Source: Tachypleus tridentatus (lineage: Eukaryota; Arthropoda; Merostomata; Xiphosura; Limulidae). Taken from it: a DNA stretch of 64,000 nt. Positions 1,421 through 52,753 of the stretch are shown here, in pieces. Location of the stretch: assembly GCF_004210375.1 (NCBI RefSeq), contig NC_134835.1, positions 71,516,447 through 71,580,446 of the forward strand, read 5' to 3'. The notes under the pieces are model-generated. The model was not told the origin of the DNA, did not search any database, and saw nothing but the letters and a program-made list of their open reading frames with translations. Within the stretch, counting starts at the first letter, position 1. Each line of letters begins with the position of its first letter. Position numbers and translations under genes: made by a program.

Positions 1421-1570
1421 TTGTGGGCATTGTTAACCCCTAATAACATGCTACTTGTTCCAACCTATCATCCTACAAAGTTTGGTTGAGATTGGCTTGG
1501 TAATCTATGCGTAATTAGATAACGGACAAGCAGACAGATACATATTTTGTCCTTTATATATAAAGCACAA
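1421..1570 (+). repeat. Interspersed repeat R4 (LINE 3'-end-like)
   Basis: It shares CCTACAAAGTTTG, GAGATTGG and a GA(C/A)AGACAGA tract followed by TTTTATATATA with 3519-3650 and 40612-40741. A conserved block, then GACAGACA, then a short tandem A/T tail is typical of 3' ends of RTE-type or other non-LTR elements. The assignment is inferred from layout only. Confidence 0.45.
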
Positions 1571-1589
1571 GTATATATATATATAAATC

Positions 1590-1866: not shown

Positions 1867-2061
1867 ATTACACAATGTAACAAAATTTTTACTTTTTCTT
1901 GTTTCTGGGGCAGAAAGTGTTATTTCTCAATTGCTTAAGCCTAGAGTAAATAGAAAAGTCCTATTTTTCTCTTCAAACTTTGCTTTTGTGACCTGGGTAA
2001 CGAAATTTTCAAACTTACCCATTTTTCAGAAAATTCCAGGTAGATTTAGTGCTGAGTAGCT

Positions 2062-2181
2062 GATAGAGAATTTTCTCGAACTAACAAGAATTTTAAAGAG
2101 CTTTCTAGAATGTTGTAGAACTTATGAGGATTTTCAAAAACCTTGTAGAATTTTCTAGAACTTTCCATAGTAATATATATA
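2062..2181 (+). promoter_or_regulatory. Heat-shock-element-like array plus TATA, copy A
   Basis: GAA triplets recur at exactly 10-bp spacing: 2068, 2078, 2088, 2108, 2118, 2148 and 2158, with decayed units at 2098, 2128 and 2138. TTC or TTG triplets sit 5 bp before many of them: 2073, 2103, 2113, 2133, 2143, 2153, and 2163 at the end. Alternating nTTCn/nGAAn pentamers are the known binding layout for heat-shock factor trimers. A TATA-like run at 2171-2181 follows immediately, then CAGGGGCTCACCACT, a plausible start region. About ten decamers are present, the longest array of the three copies. Function is inferred, not shown. Confidence 0.6.
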
Positions 2182-2257
2182 CAGGGGCTCACCACTCACC
2201 ACTTCAGTTTAGCTCTAGCTGCCAAAGTGAGCACAGACATATCTGATTTTATGAGAG

Positions 2258-2946
2258 AAGACATCAAGAAGCTGCAAGCATTCACCAGACGCATTCTGCT
2301 ATGTATGTGGCCAAATTATCAAGACAAGAGCGAAAAAGAACTCTGTGACAGCATCTGCTAAAATGTGTGAAGCATACATTGTGGACCTTCAGAAGGTGTT
2401 GTTCCCATCATTGCACATAAAACTGGCTCTCATGAAACAATTTATCACAACTCTTGATAAGGAGTCTGCAGCCTTCAAGTACCTTCAAAACTTCTTCCAT
2501 AAGCTGTCTGAGGCAAAGGTCAAAGCTGGTGTCTTCGTTGGACTACAAATAAAGAAGATCCTGGAGTGCACAGAATTCCCCAAGAAGTTCAGTAGGAAGG
2601 GATAAAAAGCTGAAGCAGTTTTGTTGCAATGGTTCGGGGCTTTTTGGGCAATCACAAAACAGAAAATTATGTGGAACTGGTTGAGGCTCTGACGAAGAAC
2701 TACGACAAAATGGGCTGCAGGATGTCCTTGAAAGTCCATACCCTTGACGCTCACCTTGATAAATTCAAGAACATGAGATCATACTCAAAGGAGCAAGGCG
2801 AGCGCTTCCACCAATATATAAAGGACTTTGAACGCCGCTACCAAGAACCGTATAACGAAAACATGATGGAAGACTATATTTGGAGGCTGATATGTGAAAG
2901 TGATTTACATTACAGTCACAAATCTCGAAAAACTACTCACTTCTAA
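2258..2946 (+). pseudogene. HSX protein remnant A (uncharacterised Cys-rich family)
   Basis: This is a broken copy of a protein gene that I recall as multicopy in many invertebrate genomes and with no assigned function. The N-terminal part reads SCKHSPDAFCYVCG in one frame after loss of the start codon (ATGGCATCAAG in the other copies, AGACATCAAG here). After TASAKMCEAY the sequence jumps straight to a distal segment (PSLHIKLALMKQF, VFVGLQIKKILE). A stop follows SRKG near 2602. A second frame from 2629 carries the C-terminal part, with GFLGNHKTENYVELV, GCRMSLKVH, SKEQGERFHQ and SHKSRKTTHF. A deletion, a stop and a frameshift make it non-functional. The fragment order matches the family as I remember it. 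Confidence 0.7.
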
Positions 2947-3309
2947 ACATTTTTGCATATCTTTAGTATAAATACATGTAAATCCTGATTCATATGTTGT
3001 TTTATTCAGTCCTTATGCAAATGAAAATGTGCAAAGTTTCCCGTTTTTGCATAGAAAATAGGTTAATTTCTAAATTTCATTATCCAGGTCACAAAAGCAA
3101 AGTTTGAAGGGAATGATGGCCATTTTCTGTACTTTTACAACATAAGCAATTACGAAATAACACATACTATCCAGGAACAAAATTTGTGTTACATAGAGTA
3201 ATAGAAGCTGAGATAAATTTATCTGTTATGTGTTATGTTTTAGTAAATTTAATAAAGGTTTTTGTGTATGTAAGAATATAGCACTATATATTTAAGTTGT
3301 TTGTTTTTA

Positions 3310-3425
3310 TGAAGTTGAGAGCAAGACTGAAAAATGGACTATCTGTGCTATGCCTACTCTTGGTATCGACACGCAATTTCTAGCGTTGAACGTCCGCAGC
3401 CACACCGTTGTGTCACTAGGTGCGT
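3310..3425 (-). mobile_element. SINE-B, degraded
   Basis: Reverse-strand SINE-B recognisable from GACTATCTGTGCT, GGTATCGACACGCA, TTCTAGCGTTGAACGTCCGC and TGTGTCACTAGG. The tail end is eroded. It has a paralogous copy at about 40408-40518 within the segmental duplication. Confidence 0.65.
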
Positions 3426-3518
3426 GAATGTAATTAACGTTAACTTGCTTCAAAATAAATAAAAACTCAAATGAAGCAATAATGGAGAGTGAATATGATT
3501 GTGAGCCTACCATTAACA

Positions 3519-3650
3519 TGCCCCTTGTTCCAAACTATCGTCCTACAAAGTTTGAATGAGATTGGCCCAGCTACCTAAGAGGTAGTTATATAACAGACAG
3601 ACAAACAGCCACACAGATTTTTTGCTTTTCATAAAGAGATTATATATATT
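3519..3650 (+). repeat. Interspersed repeat R4
   Basis: Same block as at 1421-1570: TTGTTCCAA, CGTCCTACAAAGTTTG, GAGATTGG, then AACAGACAGACAAACAG and a TATATATA tail. It is duplicated at 40612-40741. Confidence 0.5.
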
Positions 3651-4611
3651 TCAATTATTCTTTAATTATTTGTTTATTTATTTTATTATATAGACTGGTG
3701 CAGCAAAATGGCACTAACATAGTATTGTACATAGTACTCGAAATTTCATTTCTATTTGAAGTTAAATTTTGTAAACATAATATCCCCATTTTCATAACAA
3801 AACACGTTTTCAGTCTTGAACAGTTGGCTATCCATTTAATTACAAAATACTTAATCAGTAAATGCAAAATGTGAGTCTATAAATCGAGTTGGTGTAAACT
3901 AGACAAAGCTTTCGTCTTAGTCTGCTCTAACCTTTCATCTCTCCTCAATAAATAAACCAAAAATTAATTTGATCACATGGATTCATATTTAATTTTTGTA
4001 CATAATTTGCAAAATTAAATAAGTAATTATATTTTTATAGTTAATACTTGTTACACAGTTAGTTATCACAATTGCTTCAAGAGCTTTAAATAATTGCCTC
4101 TTTTTTTTCGTTAAAGCTCACACAGGCAGCTTCAATTACTTTGAAACACAATTTAACAAGACAAATTTTCCTTCTCTACTTTGTTATCACAATACATTCT
4201 ATTACAATTCCACTTTATGCTCTTTATGGCTAAACTCATAATCATGCAGACTAGATCTTTCTAATTTTCAAACTAAATTTTCTGCGTGTATTGATACACC
4301 TACAAAGATATAGAACGCTCCAAACACTTCTGGACATTATGATGTAACAACGCCTAATTAAATAAACAAGAAAAACTAAGAAAGGTGCAGTAACATGACG
4401 CAATAGTATAATAATCGCTAATTCGCAACAACTGAGCCATACAACGTATAATTCATAATCATTTACTTAAAAAACTTGCGATAAACTGTCGCTTCTAAAA
4501 ATAACTATATTTAACCCGCAAAATATGTAAACTATCTAATTTACAACACTCGCATCAAACGTATACTGAACCAGTCGTGTATATCTAATATTAACATTTT
4601 TAGATGGGTGC

Positions 4612-4885
4612 TTGTTTGTTTTGTATTTCGCACAAAGCTACTCGAGGGCTATTTGTGCTAGCCGTCCGTAATTTAGCAGTGTAAGACTAGAGGAAAGGCA
4701 GCTAGTCGTCACCACACACCGCCAACTCTTGAGCTACTCTTTTATCAACGAATAGTGGGATTGACCAACACATTATAACGCCCACACGGCTGGGAGGGCG
4801 AGCACGTTTGGTGCGACCGGAATTCGAATCCGCGACCCTCGGATAATTAATCGAACGACTTAACACACCTGGCCATGCGGAGCTC
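4612..4885 (-). mobile_element. SINE-A (tRNA-derived), copy at duplication edge
   Basis: Full-length reverse-strand SINE-A. The tail (TTTGTTTTG, TTTCGCACAAAGCTACTCG) is on the left and the tRNA-like head (GGCCATGCGGAGCTC) on the right. In the matching duplicate at 41704-41980 the SINE is flanked by the TSD AGATTGGTGC on both sides. Here only the left copy (AGATGGGTGC) remains and the right flank is unrelated DNA, so this SINE marks a recombination breakpoint. Confidence 0.85.
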
Positions 4886-4924
4886 AGTATAAGAGATAAG
4901 ATTTAAGAAATCTAAACTGGTTGG

Positions 4925-6540
4925 TATCACAGGATATTTAAAAGATTATAGAATATCAAGAAAGTTGGTGAAACATGAACTTAGAACGTGGAAAAGGATG
5001 CATGAGAAAAAGTTGGGTGAAATGTAAAAATTAACAGTAAGGATTTATTTAAATACATTAAGAGTAAACAAATAGATGGGATGAAGGTAGGACTCTTGAA
5101 GGATGATAAATTAAGGCTCGTATCTAATGATTATGAGATGGTTGGGTTATTATTAAATTTTGTTTTTTCTTCGGTTTTTACTAAAAAAAGTTAAATGTTA
5201 TTCTACATCTTTGACAGTTGATAGATGGAAGAGAGATTGAACAAAACGATTGCATTAATTCTGAGTTGATTAAGATAAAAATTGGGAAGTTTCGAGAACG
5301 ATAAGACTCTTGGGCTAGATGATATTTCTCAAAAGGTTTTGAAGAAAGTTAAAAATTAGATATGTGAACCACTTATTACTATTTTTTTCTCAGTCCTTGG
5401 ATAGTGGGCATGTATAAAATAAATGGAAGTTAGTTAATATAACTCCTCTTCCAAGAGAGGTGATAAAATCTGTCCCAGTAATTATAGACCTACTAGTCTT
5501 ACATCATTTGTGAGAGAACTTTTGGAAAATCCGGTAAAATATGCTTTGTAAAGTCGTTTATCGAAGTTTAGAATTTTATTGGTTATTCAACACAGTATTA
5601 CTAAGGTTGTTTTGTTGTTGATTTTATAATTAAGCACAAAGCTACACAAATGATTATCTGTGCTCTGCCCGCCACTGGTATCGAAACCCAAATTCTAGCA
5701 TTGTAAGTCCGCAGACATGCTGCTGTGTCACTGGGTAGTGTTAATAAGGGAATATGTTGCCTTACAAATTTTGTTTACGTTCTTTAAAAATGTTACTGAT
5801 TATATAGATGAGGGTAAAAGTGCATATCTGATGTATACGGATTTTTAGAAAGCACTTGACAAGATACCACATGAAAGGCTTGTGAAATAAACACATGGAG
5901 GATAATTTAGCAAATTGGATAGAAGAGTGGTTAGATGGAAGAAATCAGAGAGTCGTCACAAATGGAGTTTAGCCAAACTGGATTAATGTCACAAGTGGTG
6001 ACCTTAGGACTTAGTATTGGGATATTTTTTATTTACATCAATGACATAGATGAATTAATAATCAATAAATTACCCAAATTTTCTGGTTATATTAAGGTTT
6101 TGGCTGTTGCTGGTTGTGAGAAAAATGCTGCTGATTTACAAATAAATTTAGCTTATTTAGTGAGTTGGACAAATAAACGACAGATGGGTTTTAATTATAA
6201 TTAATGCAAGATAATACGTAGGGGTTATCATAATTATAGGTAGAATTTAGATCGGAATAAGTTTAGCATTGTCATGAAAGAAAGGGATCTCAGTGTAATA
6301 GTTAGTTGATCAGTCTCTTAAGCCATTCAAGCAGTGTCCTGCTGCTAGTGTTAGAGGAAGTAGGACTGACTAGACCAAGTTTGAAATACTATGTTCAGTC
6401 CTGGGCTCTTTACTCTAGGAAATACATTGAAATGTTAGGAATGTGTCAGAGAAAAGGTTCTAGAATGGTGCCTGGATGAAAGAATTGTCATATGAGGAGG
6501 GATTGAAATCTTTCAGATTGTTTTCTTTTGTATAAACGCC
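4925..6540 (+). pseudogene. CR1-like LINE reverse transcriptase, dead and truncated
   Basis: Conceptual translation across frameshifts gives the non-LTR reverse-transcriptase series. An upstream region near 5280-5480 has a GLDDIS-like block and NITPLP and NYRPTSLTS motifs. Further on come YTDF-KALDKIPHERLV (about 5836-5883), NWIEEWLDGRNQRVV (about 5913-5957), a decayed SGVPQGS box, FIYINDIDELI (about 6033-6065) and LVSWTNKRQMGFN (about 6154-6198), then tail fragments resembling AIQAVSCC and YSRKYIEMLGM. The catalytic FADD box is not preserved; LAVAG occupies its place. Many stops and indels are present, and a SINE-B sits inside at 5607-5736. The clade (CR1/Rex-like) is judged from motif wording only. 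Confidence 0.7.
5607..5736 (-). mobile_element. SINE-B nested in LINE
   Basis: Reverse-strand SINE-B with TTGTTGTTGATT tail, TAAGCACAAAGCTACAC, GGTATCGAAACCC and GTAAGTCCGCAGACATGC. The flanks GTATTACTAAGG (about 5594-5605) and GTGTTAATAAGG (about 5738-5749) look like a decayed target duplication. The LINE reading resumes after it. Confidence 0.75.
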
Positions 6541-24547: not shown

Positions 24548-25137
24548 ACCAATAAATATCAAATATATAATGTTTATTTGTGTATATTTTGTACCAGTAA
24601 ATATCAAGTATATAATGTTTATTTGTGTGTATTTTGTACCAGTAAATATCAAATATATAATGTTTATTTGTGTGTATTTTGTACCAGTAAACATCAAGTA
24701 TATAATGTTTATTTGTGTATATTTTGTACCAGGTAACATCAAGTATATAATGTTTATTTGTGTATACTTGGTATCATGTAACATCAAGTATATAATGTGT
24801 GTTTGTGTATATTTGGTACCAGGTAACATCAAGTATATAATGTTTATTTGTGTATATTTTGTACCAGGTAACATCAAGTATATAATGTTTATTTGTGTAT
24901 ACTTGGTATCATGTAACATCAAGTATATAATGTGTGTTTGTGTATATTTGGTACCAGGTAACATCAAGTATATAATGTTTATTTGTGTATATTTTGTACC
25001 AGGTAACATCAAGTATATAATGTTTATTTGTGTATACTTGGTATCATGTAACATCAAGTATATAATGTGTGTTTGTGTATATTTGGTACCAGGTAACATC
25101 AAGTATATAATGTTTATTTGTGTATATTTGGTACATA
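24548..25137. repeat. 45-bp minisatellite with 135-bp higher-order unit
   Basis: About 13 tandem units contain ATCAAGTATATAATGTTTAT and TTGTGTATATTTTGTACCAG. The first four units are near-identical. After them, three variants repeat as a block: the landmark GTATACTTGG starts at 24762, 24897 and 25032, exactly 135 bp apart. Because 45 is divisible by three and the unit lacks stops in one frame per strand, both strands show a 193-codon open frame. These are artefacts of periodicity, not genes. Confidence 0.9.
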
Positions 25138-38814: not shown

Positions 38815-39012
38815 ATTACACTATATTACAAATTTTTTACTTTTTCTTGTTCCTGGGTAAAAAGTGTTATTTTCCAATTGCTTAAGCCTAAAGTAAATGG
38901 AAAAGATCTATTTTTCTCTTCAAACTTTGCTTTTGTGACCTGGGTAATGAAATTTTCAAATTTATCCATTTTCCAGAACATTCCAGGTAAATTCAGTGCT
39001 GAGTAACTGATA

Positions 39013-39105
39013 GGGAATTTTCTCAAACTTTTCTAGAATTTTCTAGAATGTTGTAGAACTTACAAGAATTTCCTAGAACTTTCCATATTAATATATATAT
39101 ATATA
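39013..39105 (+). promoter_or_regulatory. Heat-shock-element-like array plus TATA, copy B
   Basis: GAA triplets at 39036, 39046, 39056, 39066 and 39076 are exactly 10 bp apart. TTC (or TTG/TAC/TCC variants) sits 5 bp before each, at 39031, 39041, 39051, 39061 and 39071, with a final TTC at 39081. The core reads TTCTAGAATTTTCTAGAATG. This is a textbook alternating nTTCn/nGAAn layout for heat-shock factor. A long TATATA run (about 39088-39105) and CAGGGGCTCACCACTC follow. The exon 1 start codon is at 39185, about 75 bp further on. Confidence 0.65.
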
Positions 39106-39184
39106 CAGGGGCTCACCACTCAACCACTTTAGTTTAGTTCTAGCTGCCTAAATGTACATAGAGACCTATCTGATTTTATCAGAG

Positions 39185-40030
39185 ATGGCATCAAGAAGCT
39201 GCAAGCATTTTCCAGACGCATTCTGCTATCTGTGTGGCCAATGTATTAAGACAAGTGCGAAAGAGTACTCTGTGACAGCATCTGCTAAAATGTGTGAAGC
39301 CTACAAGGCATATTTGGCCATGTCTGTCGGGGATCAACACAAACCCTGGATACCTCATTTTACCTGCGAGTACTGCAGAAAAACTCTAGAAGGTAACACA
39401 AACAATTTTGCTTGCTTGAATAGTAAGATTTTATATCATACAAATGTTAGACCTTTTAAATTTAAATATCCTTTTTTATTTCCAATAGTATAGAAAAAAT
39501 ATCATATATAAAATATTTTGCACGAACCTCTTGCACATTAGTTGTGGATGACATAAGTTTATTCTTCATAATAATAATTTTATTTTGTTCTTTTGCAGGA
39601 TGATAGAGAGGGGGAAAAGAGAGCCATGAAGTTCGCTATTTGAATAATTTGGCATGATCGCACTGACCACTCAAGCAATTGCTACTTCTGCATGGTGGAC
39701 CCTTAAAACGTTGGACTGGCAAGAATGTATCTGCTATCATGTATTCGGACCTTCCATCATCCATCGCCCCAGTGCTCTGGGATCCCTGTATGCACTCCGT
39801 CAGAGAGAGAAAATAGCCACTTTCAGAGGAGAGCAGCAAATCATAAGAGGAGGTAGATGTTGAAGATCCAAATTACAATTTCAGAGATGCAGTTGGTGAG
39901 ACAAACCCATACTACACCAACCAAAGAAACCTTGGTCTAAAACAGTCGAATGCCGAGACTATATTTGGGGGTGATGCGTGAAAGTGATTTACATTACAGT
40001 CGCAAATCGCAAACAACTACTCACTTCTAA
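39185..40030 (+). pseudogene. HSX protein remnant B, intron-containing
   Basis: Exon 1 (39185-39392) starts ATGGCATCAAG and encodes MASRSCKHFPDAFCYLCGQC, TASAKMCEAYKAYLAM and PHFTCEYCRKTLEG. The paired CxxC motifs (FCYLCG, TCEYC) suggest a zinc-binding N-terminus. Intron 39393-39598 (206 bp) has GTAACA at the donor and TTCTTTTGCAG at the acceptor. Exon 2 begins at 39599 but is frameshifted; pieces such as DHSSNCYFCMVDP and DPNYNFRDAVGETNPYY are legible in shifting frames. The middle and most of the C-terminal half are deleted before the final SRKSQTTTH-like end. The protein is non-functional and the family's function is unknown. Confidence 0.7.
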
Positions 40031-40286
40031 ACATTTTCGTATAACTTTAGTATAAATACATGTAAATCTTCATTAATATGTTGTTTTACTCAGACCTTAT
40101 GTAAATGAAAATGTGCAAATTTTCCCGTTTTTACATATAAAATAGTTAAATTTTTAAATTTCATTATCCGGGTCACAAAAGCAATGTTTGAAGAGAATAT
40201 TGGCAATTTTCTGTACTTTTACAACATAAGCAATTAAGAAATAACACATACTATCCAGGAACCAAATTTGTGTTACATAGTGTCAT

Positions 40287-41976
40287 AGAAGCTGAGATAT
40301 ATATCCTTTGTCCACTGTGTGTGTATTATGTTTTAGTAAATTTAATAAAGGTTTTTGTGTATATAAGAATATAGCACTATATATTTAGGTAGTTTGTTTT
40401 TATGAAGTTGAGAGCAAGGCTGAAAAATGGACTATCTGTGCAATGCCCACTCTTGGTATCAACACGCAATTTCTAGCGTTGAACGTCCGCAGCCACACCC
40501 TTGTGTCACTAGGTGCGTGAATGTAATTAACGTTAACTTGCTTCAAAATAAATAAAAACTCAAATGAAGCAATAATGGAGAGTAAATATGATTGTGAGCC
40601 TACCATTAACATGCCCCTTGTTCCAAACTATCGTCCTACAAAGTTTGAATGAGATTGGCCCAGCTACCTAAGAGGTAGTTAGATAACAGACAGACAAACA
40701 GCCACACAGATTTTTTGCTTTTCATAAAGAGATTATATATATTTCAATTATTCTTTAATTATTTGTTTATTTATTTTATTATATAGACTGGTGCAGCAAA
40801 ATGGCACTAACATAGTTTTGTACATAGTACTCGAAATTTCATTTCTATTTGAAGTTAAATTTTGTAAACATAATATCTCCATTTTCATAACAAAACACTT
40901 TTCTAGTCTTGAACAATTCGCTATCCATTTAATTGCAAAATATTCAATCAGTAAATGCAAAATGTGAGTCTATAAATCGAGTTGGTTTAAACTGGACAAA
41001 GATTTCGTCTTAGTCTGCTCTAACCTTTCATCTCTCCTCAATAAATAAGCCAAAAATTAATTTGATTACACGGATTCATATTTAATTTTTGTACGTAATT
41101 TGCAAAATTGAATAAGTAATCTTATTTTTATAGTTAATACTTGTTACACAGTTAACTGTCACAATTGCTTCAAGAGCTTTAAATAATTGCCTCTTTTTTT
41201 CGTTAAAGCTCACACAGGCAGCTTCAATTACTTTAAAACACAATTTAACAAGACAAATTTTCCTTCTCTACTTTGTTATTACAATACATTCTATTACAAT
41301 TCCACTTTATGCTCTTTATAGCTAAACTCATAGTCATGCAGACTAGATCTTTCTAATTTTCAATCTAAATTTTCTGCGTGTATTGATACACCTACAAATA
41401 TATAGAACGCTCCAAACACTTCTGGACATTATGATGTAACAACGCCTAATTAAATAAACAACAAAAACTAAGAAAGGTGCAGTAACATAACGCAATAGTG
41501 TAACAATCGCTAATTCGCAACAACTGAGCCATACAACCTATGATTCATAATCATTTACTTAAAAAAATTGCGATAAACTGTCGCTTCTAAAAATAACTAT
41601 ATTTAACCCGCGAAATATGAAAACTATCTAATTTACAACACTCGCATCAAACTTATACTGAACCAGTCGTGTATATCTAATATTAACATTTTTAGATTGG
41701 TGCTTGTTTGTTTTGAATTTCGCACAAAGCTACTCGAGGGCTATTTGTGCTAGCCGTCCCTAATTTAGCAGTGTAAGACTAGAGGGAAAGCAGCCAGTCA
41801 TCACCACCCACCGCCAACTCTTGAGCTACTCTTTTACCAACGAATAGTGGGATTGACCATCACATTATAACGCCCCCACGACTGAAAAGGCGAGCATGTT
41901 TGGTACGACAGGGATGCGAACCAGAGACCCTCAGATTAGGAGTCGCACGCCTTAACACGCTTGGCCATGCCAGGCC
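40287..41976 (+). repeat. Segmental duplication, copy 2 (matches 3203-4885)
   Basis: Near-identical to 3203-4885 with small indels. It contains the same decayed SINE-B (about 40408-40518), the R4 repeat (40612-40741) and the AT-rich block, ending in a SINE-A. Here the SINE is followed by its second TSD and a continuous flank, so this copy keeps the ancestral right junction. Confidence 0.8.
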
Positions 41977-51491: not shown

Positions 51492-51687
51492 ATAACACTC
51501 TGTAACAAAATGTTTATTTCTTCTTGTTCCTGGGCAAAAAGTGTTGTTTCCCAATTGTTTATGCCTAAAGTATATGGAAAAGACCTATTTTTCTCTTCAA
51601 AATTTGCTTTTGTGATCTGTGTAATGAAATTTTCAAATTTACTCATTTTCCAGAACATTTCAGATAGATTCAGTGCTGAGTAGCTGA

Positions 51688-51745
51688 TAGAGAATTGTCT
51701 CAAACTCAGAAGAATTTTCTAAAACTTTCCATAATAAGATATATA
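51688..51745 (+). promoter_or_regulatory. Short heat-shock-element-like array plus TATA, copy C
   Basis: Only about four decamers remain: GAA at 51692 and 51712, with decayed AAA units at 51702 and 51722, and AGAATTTTCT as the best pair. An ATATATAC run and CAGGGGCTCACCACTCAACC follow, as in A and B. The array is shorter than in the other copies, so decamer number varies like a tandem repeat. Confidence 0.5.
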
Positions 51746-51824
51746 CAGGGGCTCACCACTCAACCACTTCAGTTAAGTTCTAGCTGCCTAAGTGTAAATA
51801 GAGACCTGTCTGATTTTATCAGAG

Positions 51825-52487
51825 ATGGCATCAAGAAGCTGCAAGCATTCTTCAGACCCATTCTGCTATCTATGTGGCCAATGTATCAAGACAAGTACGA
51901 AAGAGTACTTTGTGACAGCATCTGCTAAAATGTGTGAAGTCTACAAGATATATTTCGCCATGCCTGTCGGGATCAAGACAAACCCTTAACATCTCATTTT
52001 TCCTGCGAACACTGCAGAAAAACTCTAGAAGGTAACACGGACAATTTTTGCCTGCTTGAATAGAAAGATTTTATATTATGCAAATTTTACCCTTTTAAAA
52101 TTTAAATATGTTTTTTATTTCCAATAGTATAGAAAAAATATCATATATAAAATATTTTGCATGAACCTCTTGCATATTAGTTGAGGATGACATAAATTTA
52201 TTCTTCATAATAACAATTTTATTTTGTTATTTTGCAGGGTGGTACAGAGGGGAAAGAGAGCCATGAAGTTCGCTATTCCAAGAATTTGGTGTAAACCCTC
52301 TGACCACTCAAGCGATTGCTACTTCTGCGTGGTGGACTCTTTCAAACGTCGGGCTGGCAAGAATGCATTTGCTATCATGTATCCGGCCTTTCCACCATCC
52401 ATCGCCCCAGTGCCACACTGCCCTGAGCTCCCTGTATTCACTCCGCCAGAGAGAAAGCAGCCATCTCGAAAAACTACTCACTTATAA
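51825..52487 (+). pseudogene. HSX protein remnant C, intron-containing
   Basis: Exon 1 (51825-52031) encodes SCKHSSDPFCYLCGQCIK and TASAKMCEVYK, then frameshifts near GTCGGGATCAAGAC. Intron 52032-52237 is 206 bp, the same length and position as in copy B, with GT and TTTTGCAG borders. Exon 2 reads GWYRGE, then a one-base loss shifts frame; the other frame continues RAMKFAIPRIWCKPSDHSSD, CYFCVVDSFKRRAGKNA and APVPHCPELPV to the stop at 52487. The CYFC motif adds to the cysteine pairs of exon 1. The central and C-terminal regions are deleted. Confidence 0.72.
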
Positions 52488-52753
52488 ACATTTTTGTTCT
52501 TTTATGTATAACTTTAGTATAAATACATGCAAATCTTGATTCATATGTTATTTTATTCAGTCCTTATGCAAATGAAAATGTGCAAATTTTCCCGTTTTTT
52601 ACATATAAAATAGGTAAATTTCTAAATTTCATTATTCAGGTCACAACAGCAAAGTTTGAAGGGAATAATGGCCATTGTCTGTACTTTTACAACATAAGCA
52701 ATTAAGAAATAATAATACTATCCAGGAATAAAATTTGTGTTGCACAGTGTAAT

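What the first reader, a model, noticed from the sequence alone, without database searches (positions are those of the whole stretch)
2062..2181. Transposon promoter built as a 10-bp-periodic heat-shock-element array
Seen: in HSX copy A, GAA falls on an exact 10-bp grid (2068, 2078, 2088, 2108, 2118, 2148, 2158) with TTC/TTG 5 bp before many. Copy B has the same at 39031-39083. A TATA-like run follows at once. Known: heat-shock factor trimers bind alternating nGAAn/nTTCn pentamers, and Hsp genes place such arrays just upstream of TATA. Inference: the element's gene was heat- or stress-inducible. I know of plant and insect elements with stress promoters, but not of this family having one. The decamers act both as a tandem repeat and as a binding array.
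Basis: partly seen in the sequence, partly recalled or inferred. Interest (0 to 1): 0.82.

Follow-up and report, generated by a model that had tools for sequence, protein, structure and literature searches.

The report
Transposon with heat-shock-type promoter array
A DNA transposon present in many copies in this animal's genome carries, right before the start of its own gene, a long ladder of the DNA sites that heat-shock genes use, which suggests that it switches itself on with the host's stress alarm.

Summary
In copy A, GAA lies on an exact 10-bp grid; the decamer reads nGAAnnTTCn, the heat-shock-element (HSE) unit, directly upstream of a TATA box and an initiator. The host genome was searchable. 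Of 40 copies found with a query outside the array, 39 beat all 100 shuffles over 8 HSE units; array lengths run from 10 to 150 bp, 34 of 40 exact multiples of 10. All 20 copies read from a left-end query have it. TTC-N2-GAA occurs 120 times against 3.6 in shuffles; other spacings are at background. Six near-identical host HSP70 promoters carry the same motif before TATA but score lower over eight units (18 against a mean of 21.8 of 24). CAC...GTG ends and TWA duplications fit a Chapaev3-type transposon. The array was not seen at the right end, so a promoter is likelier than a transposase-binding repeat. HSF binding and heat induction were not tested. HSE-driven transposons are known (Helitron1_CE, DIRS-1, ONSEN); this is a new variant in another class.

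The parts
1871..3198 (+). HSX copy A, internally deleted Chapaev3-type element, CAC...GAG ends, flanked by TTA and TAA
1871..2025 (+). left terminal inverted repeat of copy A (inner border approximate)
   Evidence: inverted repeats I1 and I2
2024..2036 (+). distal HSE-like site, 8 of 9 core positions
2067..2166 (+). array of 10 decamers nGAAnnTTCn (20 alternating pentamers, 50 of 60 core matches)
2174..2181 (+). TATA box (TATATATA)
   Evidence: read; genome consensus
2204..2209 (+). initiator-like TCAGTT, A at 2206, 28-32 bp from the TATA registers
   Evidence: read; genome consensus and spacing
2255..2943 (+). remnants of the transposase gene in copy A (two open stretches in different frames; the start codon seen in B and C is not there)
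3055..3198 (-). right terminal inverted repeat of copy A, no HSE array beside it
38819..40282 (+). HSX copy B
38971..38983 (+). distal HSE TTCCAGAACATTC, 9 of 9 core positions
39014..39084 (+). array of 7 decamers in copy B, one extra base in the second
39129..39134 (+). initiator-like TTAGTT of copy B
   Evidence: read
39185..39394 (+). open stretch of about 70 residues that starts the transposase gene in copy B; a GT at 39393 looks like a splice donor (by eye)
51496..52749 (+).
51648..51660 (+). distal HSE-like site of copy C, 8 of 9
51691..51730 (+). array of 4 decamers in copy C
51740..51747 (+). TATA box of copy C (TATATACA)
   Evidence: read
51769..51774 (+). initiator-like TCAGTT of copy C
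   Evidence: read

Best explanation
HSX is a Chapaev3-type cut-and-paste DNA transposon whose transposase gene is driven by a heat-shock-type promoter: a distal HSE, then a run of HSE decamers just inside the left terminal repeat, then TATA, an initiator and a leader of 54 nt in the consensus. Most likely, when host HSF trimerises under heat or other proteotoxic stress, or when it is active in germ cells or embryos, several trimers bind the array cooperatively and drive transposase transcription, so that transposition coincides with HSF activity. Shown: anatomy, phase, presence in the genomic copies read, spacing, resemblance to host HSP70 promoters, element ends. Inferred: HSF binding, induction, coupling to transposition.
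For: HSE chains far above shuffles in the window. Of 40 copies found with a query outside the array, 39 beat all 100 shuffles over 8 units and 38 over 6; 20 of 20 copies read from a left-end query score 21-23 of 24 (no shuffles run there). Only the HSF spacing is enriched: TTC-N2-GAA 120 against 3.6, GAA-N2-TTC 141 against 3.4, spacings 0, 1 and 3-7 at background. The consensus of 26 equal-length copies has GAA in 10 of 10 decamers and 56 of 60 core matches, better than any of the 26 (49-55). CAGTT is present in 56 of 70 copies, and TATACA lies 28 bp before its A in 55 of the 65 in which a spacing was measured. The 6 host HSP70 promoters fetched, near-identical to each other, have a perfect 4-unit HSE 13 bp before TATAAATA and a distal GAGAATTTTCCCGAA that differs by one base from HSX GAGAATTTTCTCGAA. 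Host HSF domains found. No array in 33 right-end stretches. Helitron1_CE shows that HSEs in a transposon's promoter can be HSF-driven.
Against: No expression or binding data. The window copies are dead derivatives. In inserted copies the core positions are no better conserved than the spacers (5.7% against 3.8% divergence), which neutral decay would give but which is no sign of selection. Rotating the core mask over the window decamers does not single out the HSE phase (1.287 against 1.295). The TTC side is weaker than the GAA side (6 of 10 perfect in the consensus). A decamer passes as an HSE unit by chance in 0.3% of cases (window decamers) to 0.8% (letters of the unit permuted). The copies read are the best-scoring ones, not a random sample.
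Confidence: 0.78

Rival explanations
1. The decamers are subterminal binding sites for the element's own transposase or an accessory protein, as in plant CACTA elements (recalled), and the match to HSE is incidental.
For: The array lies just inside the left terminal repeat and is present in the 20 of 20 left ends read; by its ends the element belongs to the Chapaev-Mirage-CACTA group.
Against: The right end shows no such array: 33 right-end stretches average 13.5 of 24 over 8 units, largest 15, close to the mean of 13.5 for shuffled upstream stretches; some of the 33 were located only roughly. The spacing is exactly that of HSF sites, and the array abuts TATA and initiator.
Confidence: 0.1
2. 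HSF does bind, but the purpose is germ-line or embryonic expression rather than response to heat.
For: HSFs act in gametogenesis (HSF5 paper PMC11059408, start of abstract seen in the listing), and a transposon gains only from germ-line activity (general knowledge).
Against: No tissue data. The promoter has the same build as the host's multi-copy HSP70 cluster, though nothing here shows that this cluster is heat-inducible.
Confidence: 0.25
3. The array is a minisatellite that arose by slippage and resembles HSEs by chance; it has no role.
For: Length varies by whole decamers (34 of 40 exact multiples of 10), as slippage would give; core letters are not protected in inserted copies.
Against: A decamer reads GAAnnTTC in some phase in only 0.3-0.8% of cases; a separate HSE lies outside the array in all three window copies; the array sits next to a complete core promoter; the consensus fits HSE better than any of the 26 copies behind it.
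Confidence: 0.07
4. Phased A/T tracts give curved DNA that excludes nucleosomes or aids transposition.
For: AATTTT tracts stand in 4 of 10 consensus decamers, at multiples of 20 bp (read).
Against: Six of ten decamers lack the tract, and curvature does not explain the specific GAA and TTC letters at two-base spacing. Curvature was not computed.
Confidence: 0.04

Closest known systems
Helitron1_CE of Caenorhabditis elegans (PMC6927752 and PMC6765114, passages seen)
   Same: DNA transposon whose own Rep-Helicase gene has many HSEs (14 reported for F33H12.6) in its promoter region; motifs consistent with tandem, overlapping HSEs; HSF-1 binding and heat induction shown there.
   Different: Helitrons are rolling-circle elements without terminal inverted repeats or target duplications (the latter recalled); HSX has both. 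HSX has one decamer array at a fixed place before TATA. Induction is not shown for HSX.
Chapaev3 transposons (PMC4079192, passages seen)
   Same: CAC...GTG ends, TWA target duplication, A before and T after the duplication.
   Different: The passages seen say nothing of an HSE promoter (they were picked by other terms); HSX transposase phylogeny was not tested here.
DIRS-1 of Dictyostelium (PMC2685390, passages seen; the original papers only as references)
   Different: A retrotransposon of a slime mould; promoter layout not compared.
ONSEN of Arabidopsis (PMC8376061, listing and start of abstract)
   Same: Element activated by heat; the paper holds the terms HSFA2 and heat shock element.
   Different: Retrotransposon in plants; HSEs in its LTR are recalled.
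Hsp70 promoters, of this host and of Drosophila (PMC2871787, passages seen)
   Same: Alternating nGAAn and nTTCn upstream of the gene; in this host just before TATA, with a near-identical GAGAATTTTCYCGAA stretch.
   Different: Drosophila HSEs reach 11 subunits; the HSX consensus has 20 in register (16 perfect), and HSX outscores the host HSP70 promoters over 8 units (21.8 against 18 of 24).

Membership tests
Heat-shock element array | at least 3 contiguous alternating nGAAn/nTTCn pentamers | tested here: met
   9 of 9 triplets at 2068, 2148, 2153, 39031, 39036; definition from PMC2871787
Heat-shock element array | G of nGAAn and C of nTTCn intact | tested here: inconclusive
   G intact in 10 of 10 consensus decamers, C in 8 of 10 (two of these with TAC for TTC); TTC complete in 6 of 10
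Heat-shock element array | within 400 bp upstream of the transcription start | tested here: met
   array ends 40 bp before the predicted initiator A at 2206; the start is predicted, not mapped
Heat-shock element array | bound by HSF and induced by heat | not testable with these tools
   no binding or expression data
[quoted passage not shown]
   by eye, CAC in 26 and GTG in 24 of 31 copies whose two ends were located (the ends were sought with a pattern of that kind, up to 4 changes); inverted repeats
Chapaev3 transposon | TWA 3-bp target duplication | tested here: met
   identical 3 bp in 18 of 31 (3 of 31 at 2 bp, 0 at 4 bp); where both sides are TTA or TAA they agree in 17 of 20
Chapaev3 transposon | A before and T after the duplication | tested here: met
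   15 of the 18 copies with identical 3 bp, counted by eye
Chapaev3 transposon | DDE transposase grouping with Chapaev3 | not tested
   Pfam gave nothing above its cut-offs for five fragments; the protein search of the genome did not complete
Helitron | no terminal inverted repeats and no target duplication (recalled) | tested here: not met
   inverted repeats and TWA duplications are present
CACTA-type subterminal transposase-binding array | repeats at both ends (recalled) | tested here: not met
   array at the left end, none in 33 right-end stretches, some located only roughly

The most novel reading that the evidence does not exclude
The element carries one of the longest HSE arrays of any promoter, longer and better matched than the host's own HSP70 promoters, and whole-decamer gain and loss makes it an evolving dial of HSF response. 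With more than two thousand candidate copies it has spread HSE arrays through the genome, where they may bring neighbouring genes under HSF control or compete for HSF.
Probability: 0.25. Interest if true: 0.85.

Novelty: new variant of a known kind. Interest (0 to 1): 0.68.

Why it matters
If HSF does drive it, this would extend HSF-driven transposons from Helitrons and retroelements to a cut-and-paste element in what looks like an arthropod genome, suggest that transposons reach the same stress switch repeatedly, and offer a natural series of promoters with about 1 to 15 decamers for testing how HSE number sets the strength of the response. It would also make testable whether stress waves left bursts of insertion in this lineage.

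Tried and rejected
Relatives outside the genome: viral contigs by two transposase pieces and by two exact DNA patterns, genome contigs by two exact patterns: nothing; these collections hold viruses and prokaryotes, so this says little. Pfam on five fragments gave only sub-threshold hits. A STAT-type reading (TTC-N3-GAA, spacing recalled) was rejected: 4 against 2.7 in shuffles. Selection on core positions inside inserted copies was looked for and not found. The mask-rotation test of conservation within decamers did not discriminate (one search is an earlier run of it with copy B out of phase). Automated array lengths are off by a unit or mis-anchored in some copies (for example L048 and L069); the lengths quoted are. 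The duplication column printed was misaligned; one search replaces it. Structure prediction, fold search and Rfam were not used.

Full report
Observation. Copy A of the element (1871-3198) has ten consecutive decamers at 2067-2166. The unit is nGAAnnTTCn, that is two alternating HSF pentamers. Over 20 alternating pentamers copy A matches 50 of 60 core letters; the largest value in 100 dinucleotide shuffles of the window is 35. A four-unit TTCnnGAAnnTTCnnGAA occurs once in the window, in copy B, and in none of 100 shuffles. A separate HSE lies upstream of the array in all three copies (9 of 9 in B, 8 of 9 in A and C). Short HSE-like sites also occur elsewhere: one perfect triplet, at 5286, lies outside the elements, which is what chance gives (0.7 per shuffle).

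Core promoter. The array is followed by TATATATA and a TCAGTT initiator. The consensus of the 70 loci L001-L070 (69 places, since L015 and L068 are the same) shows the same; CAGTT is present in 56 of 70, and the distance from the last TATA register to the initiator A is 28 bp in 55 of the 65 for which it was measured. In that consensus the start codon lies 54 nt after the predicted start of transcription (counted by eye).

Genome-wide test. The window's genome (2.17 Gb) was searchable with difficulty. A query holding the array gave 2777 first-look candidates, one downstream of the array 2919, one upstream of it 2466; these are candidate counts, of which the best 40 were scored each time. From, whose query does not touch the array, all 40 scored copies were read (window copies B and C among them): 39 of 40 beat all 100 shuffles over 8 pentamers and 38 of 40 over 6; the exception at 8, L075, has a single decamer left. 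In an earlier run with 250 bp upstream and 50 shuffles on 30 of these copies, 29 of 30 passed at 8 units and 28 of 30 at 6; window copy C failed both. Array lengths are 10 to 150 bp, 34 of 40 exact multiples of ten, the other six off by one or two bases. From, the 20 places after the window's own copy were read (20 of 40 scored): 20 of 20 carry the array, 16-17 of 18 over 6 units and 21-23 of 24 over 8; no shuffles were run on them. In 8 of these 20 the promoter anchor is missing; by eye the array there runs straight into other sequence that looks like later coding sequence. All these are best-scoring copies, not a random sample.

Specificity. In the 40 copies TTC-N2-GAA occurs 120 times (3.6 in shuffles) and GAA-N2-TTC 141 times (3.4); spacings 0, 1 and 3-7 are at background (0-6 against 2.6-4.5). 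This is the HSF register. The consensus of the 26 copies with a stretch of exactly 114 bp has GAA in 10 of 10 decamers, TTC in 6 of 10, and 56 of 60 core letters, while the single copies have 49-55, mean 52.9. The copies thus point back to an ancestor with a better HSE array. These 26 come from the 40 loci found with the array of copy A as query, so they favour its length. Against a strong claim of selection: inside inserted copies core letters diverge as much as spacers (5.7% and 3.8%); rotating the core mask over the window decamers does not single out the HSE phase; and a decamer would read as an HSE unit by chance in 0.3% (window decamers) to 0.8% (letters permuted) of cases.

Host control. 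The genome has 77 exon-level matches to HSP70, among them a cluster on contig 8, and five matches to the HSF DNA-binding domain, one over the whole domain. Six HSP70 promoters of the cluster were fetched; they are nearly the same sequence and so amount to about one observation. All six have TTCGAGAAACTTCGAGAA, a perfect four-unit HSE, 13 bp before TATAAATA, and a distal GAGAATTTTCCCGAA. Best scores there are 12 of 12 over 4 units, 15 of 18 over 6, 18 of 24 over 8 (no shuffles run); HSX averages 16.6 of 18 and 21.8 of 24. In Drosophila, HSEs run from 2 to 11 subunits (PMC2871787, passages).

What the element is. Inverted repeats, CAC...GTG ends and 3-bp duplications: among 31 copies whose two ends were located, out of 70 loci, the 3 bp agree in 18, against 3 of 31 at 2 bp and 0 at 4 bp; where both sides read TTA or TAA they agree in 17 of 20. 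PMC4079192 (passages) gives CAC/GTG ends, TWA duplications and flanking A and T as Chapaev3 hallmarks. The transposase could not be classified here. That the host is a horseshoe crab or near relative is my recollection of its repeats, not a test.

Mechanism. The best reading is an HSF-driven transposase promoter. Anatomy, phase, presence in the copies read, spacing and host parallel are shown; HSF binding, induction and coupling to transposition are inferred. The main rival, transposase-binding subterminal repeats, is weakened by the lack of the array at the right end (33 stretches, mean 13.5 and largest 15 of 24 over 8 units, some only roughly located). Germ-line use of HSF is compatible with the main reading and overlaps with it.

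Novelty. [quoted passage not shown] DIRS-1 (PMC2685390, passages), ONSEN (PMC8376061, listing) and putative HSEs in LTRs of Cryptococcus retroelements (PMC12810828, passages) are further cases. That last paper also describes a mobile element, CNEST, of the same supergroup as Chapaev, and finds that heat raises the mobility of a subset of its elements; in the passages seen the HSEs are in LTRs. The lists shown (20 of 55 papers; 8 of 8; 8 of 14; 8 of 17; 15 of 1,667) hold no paper that, by title or start of abstract, reports an HSE promoter in a Chapaev element or in a transposon of horseshoe crabs; since most of these lists were cut, the absence is weak. I rate it a new variant of a known kind.

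Noticed in passing
window 3203-4878 and 40287-41970: Copies A and B share about 1.4 kb of right flank at 95-96% identity, ending in a SINE-like repeat (88%), while the elements themselves agree at only 89-91% and the left flanks do not match.
   Followed up: partly
L088, L093, L094, L097, L098, L099, L100, L106: In 8 of 20 copies chosen by the left end the promoter anchor is missing and, by eye, the HSE array runs straight into other sequence, as if the repeat were a hot spot of internal deletion.
   Followed up: no
L081-L086 (contig 8, 132.8-133.8 Mb): A multi-copy HSP70 cluster with near-identical promoters.
   Followed up: partly
window 4609-4888 and more than a dozen further places: A SINE-like repeat family present many times in both orientations.
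   Followed up: no
window 24558-25134: A 45-bp tandem repeat, 12.8 copies, with a 135-bp higher-order unit.
   Followed up: no
window 1444-1580, 3514-3649, 40607-40742: A short repeat of about 137 bp; the first place is 74-75% alike to the other two, which lie in the shared flank of copies A and B.
   Followed up: no
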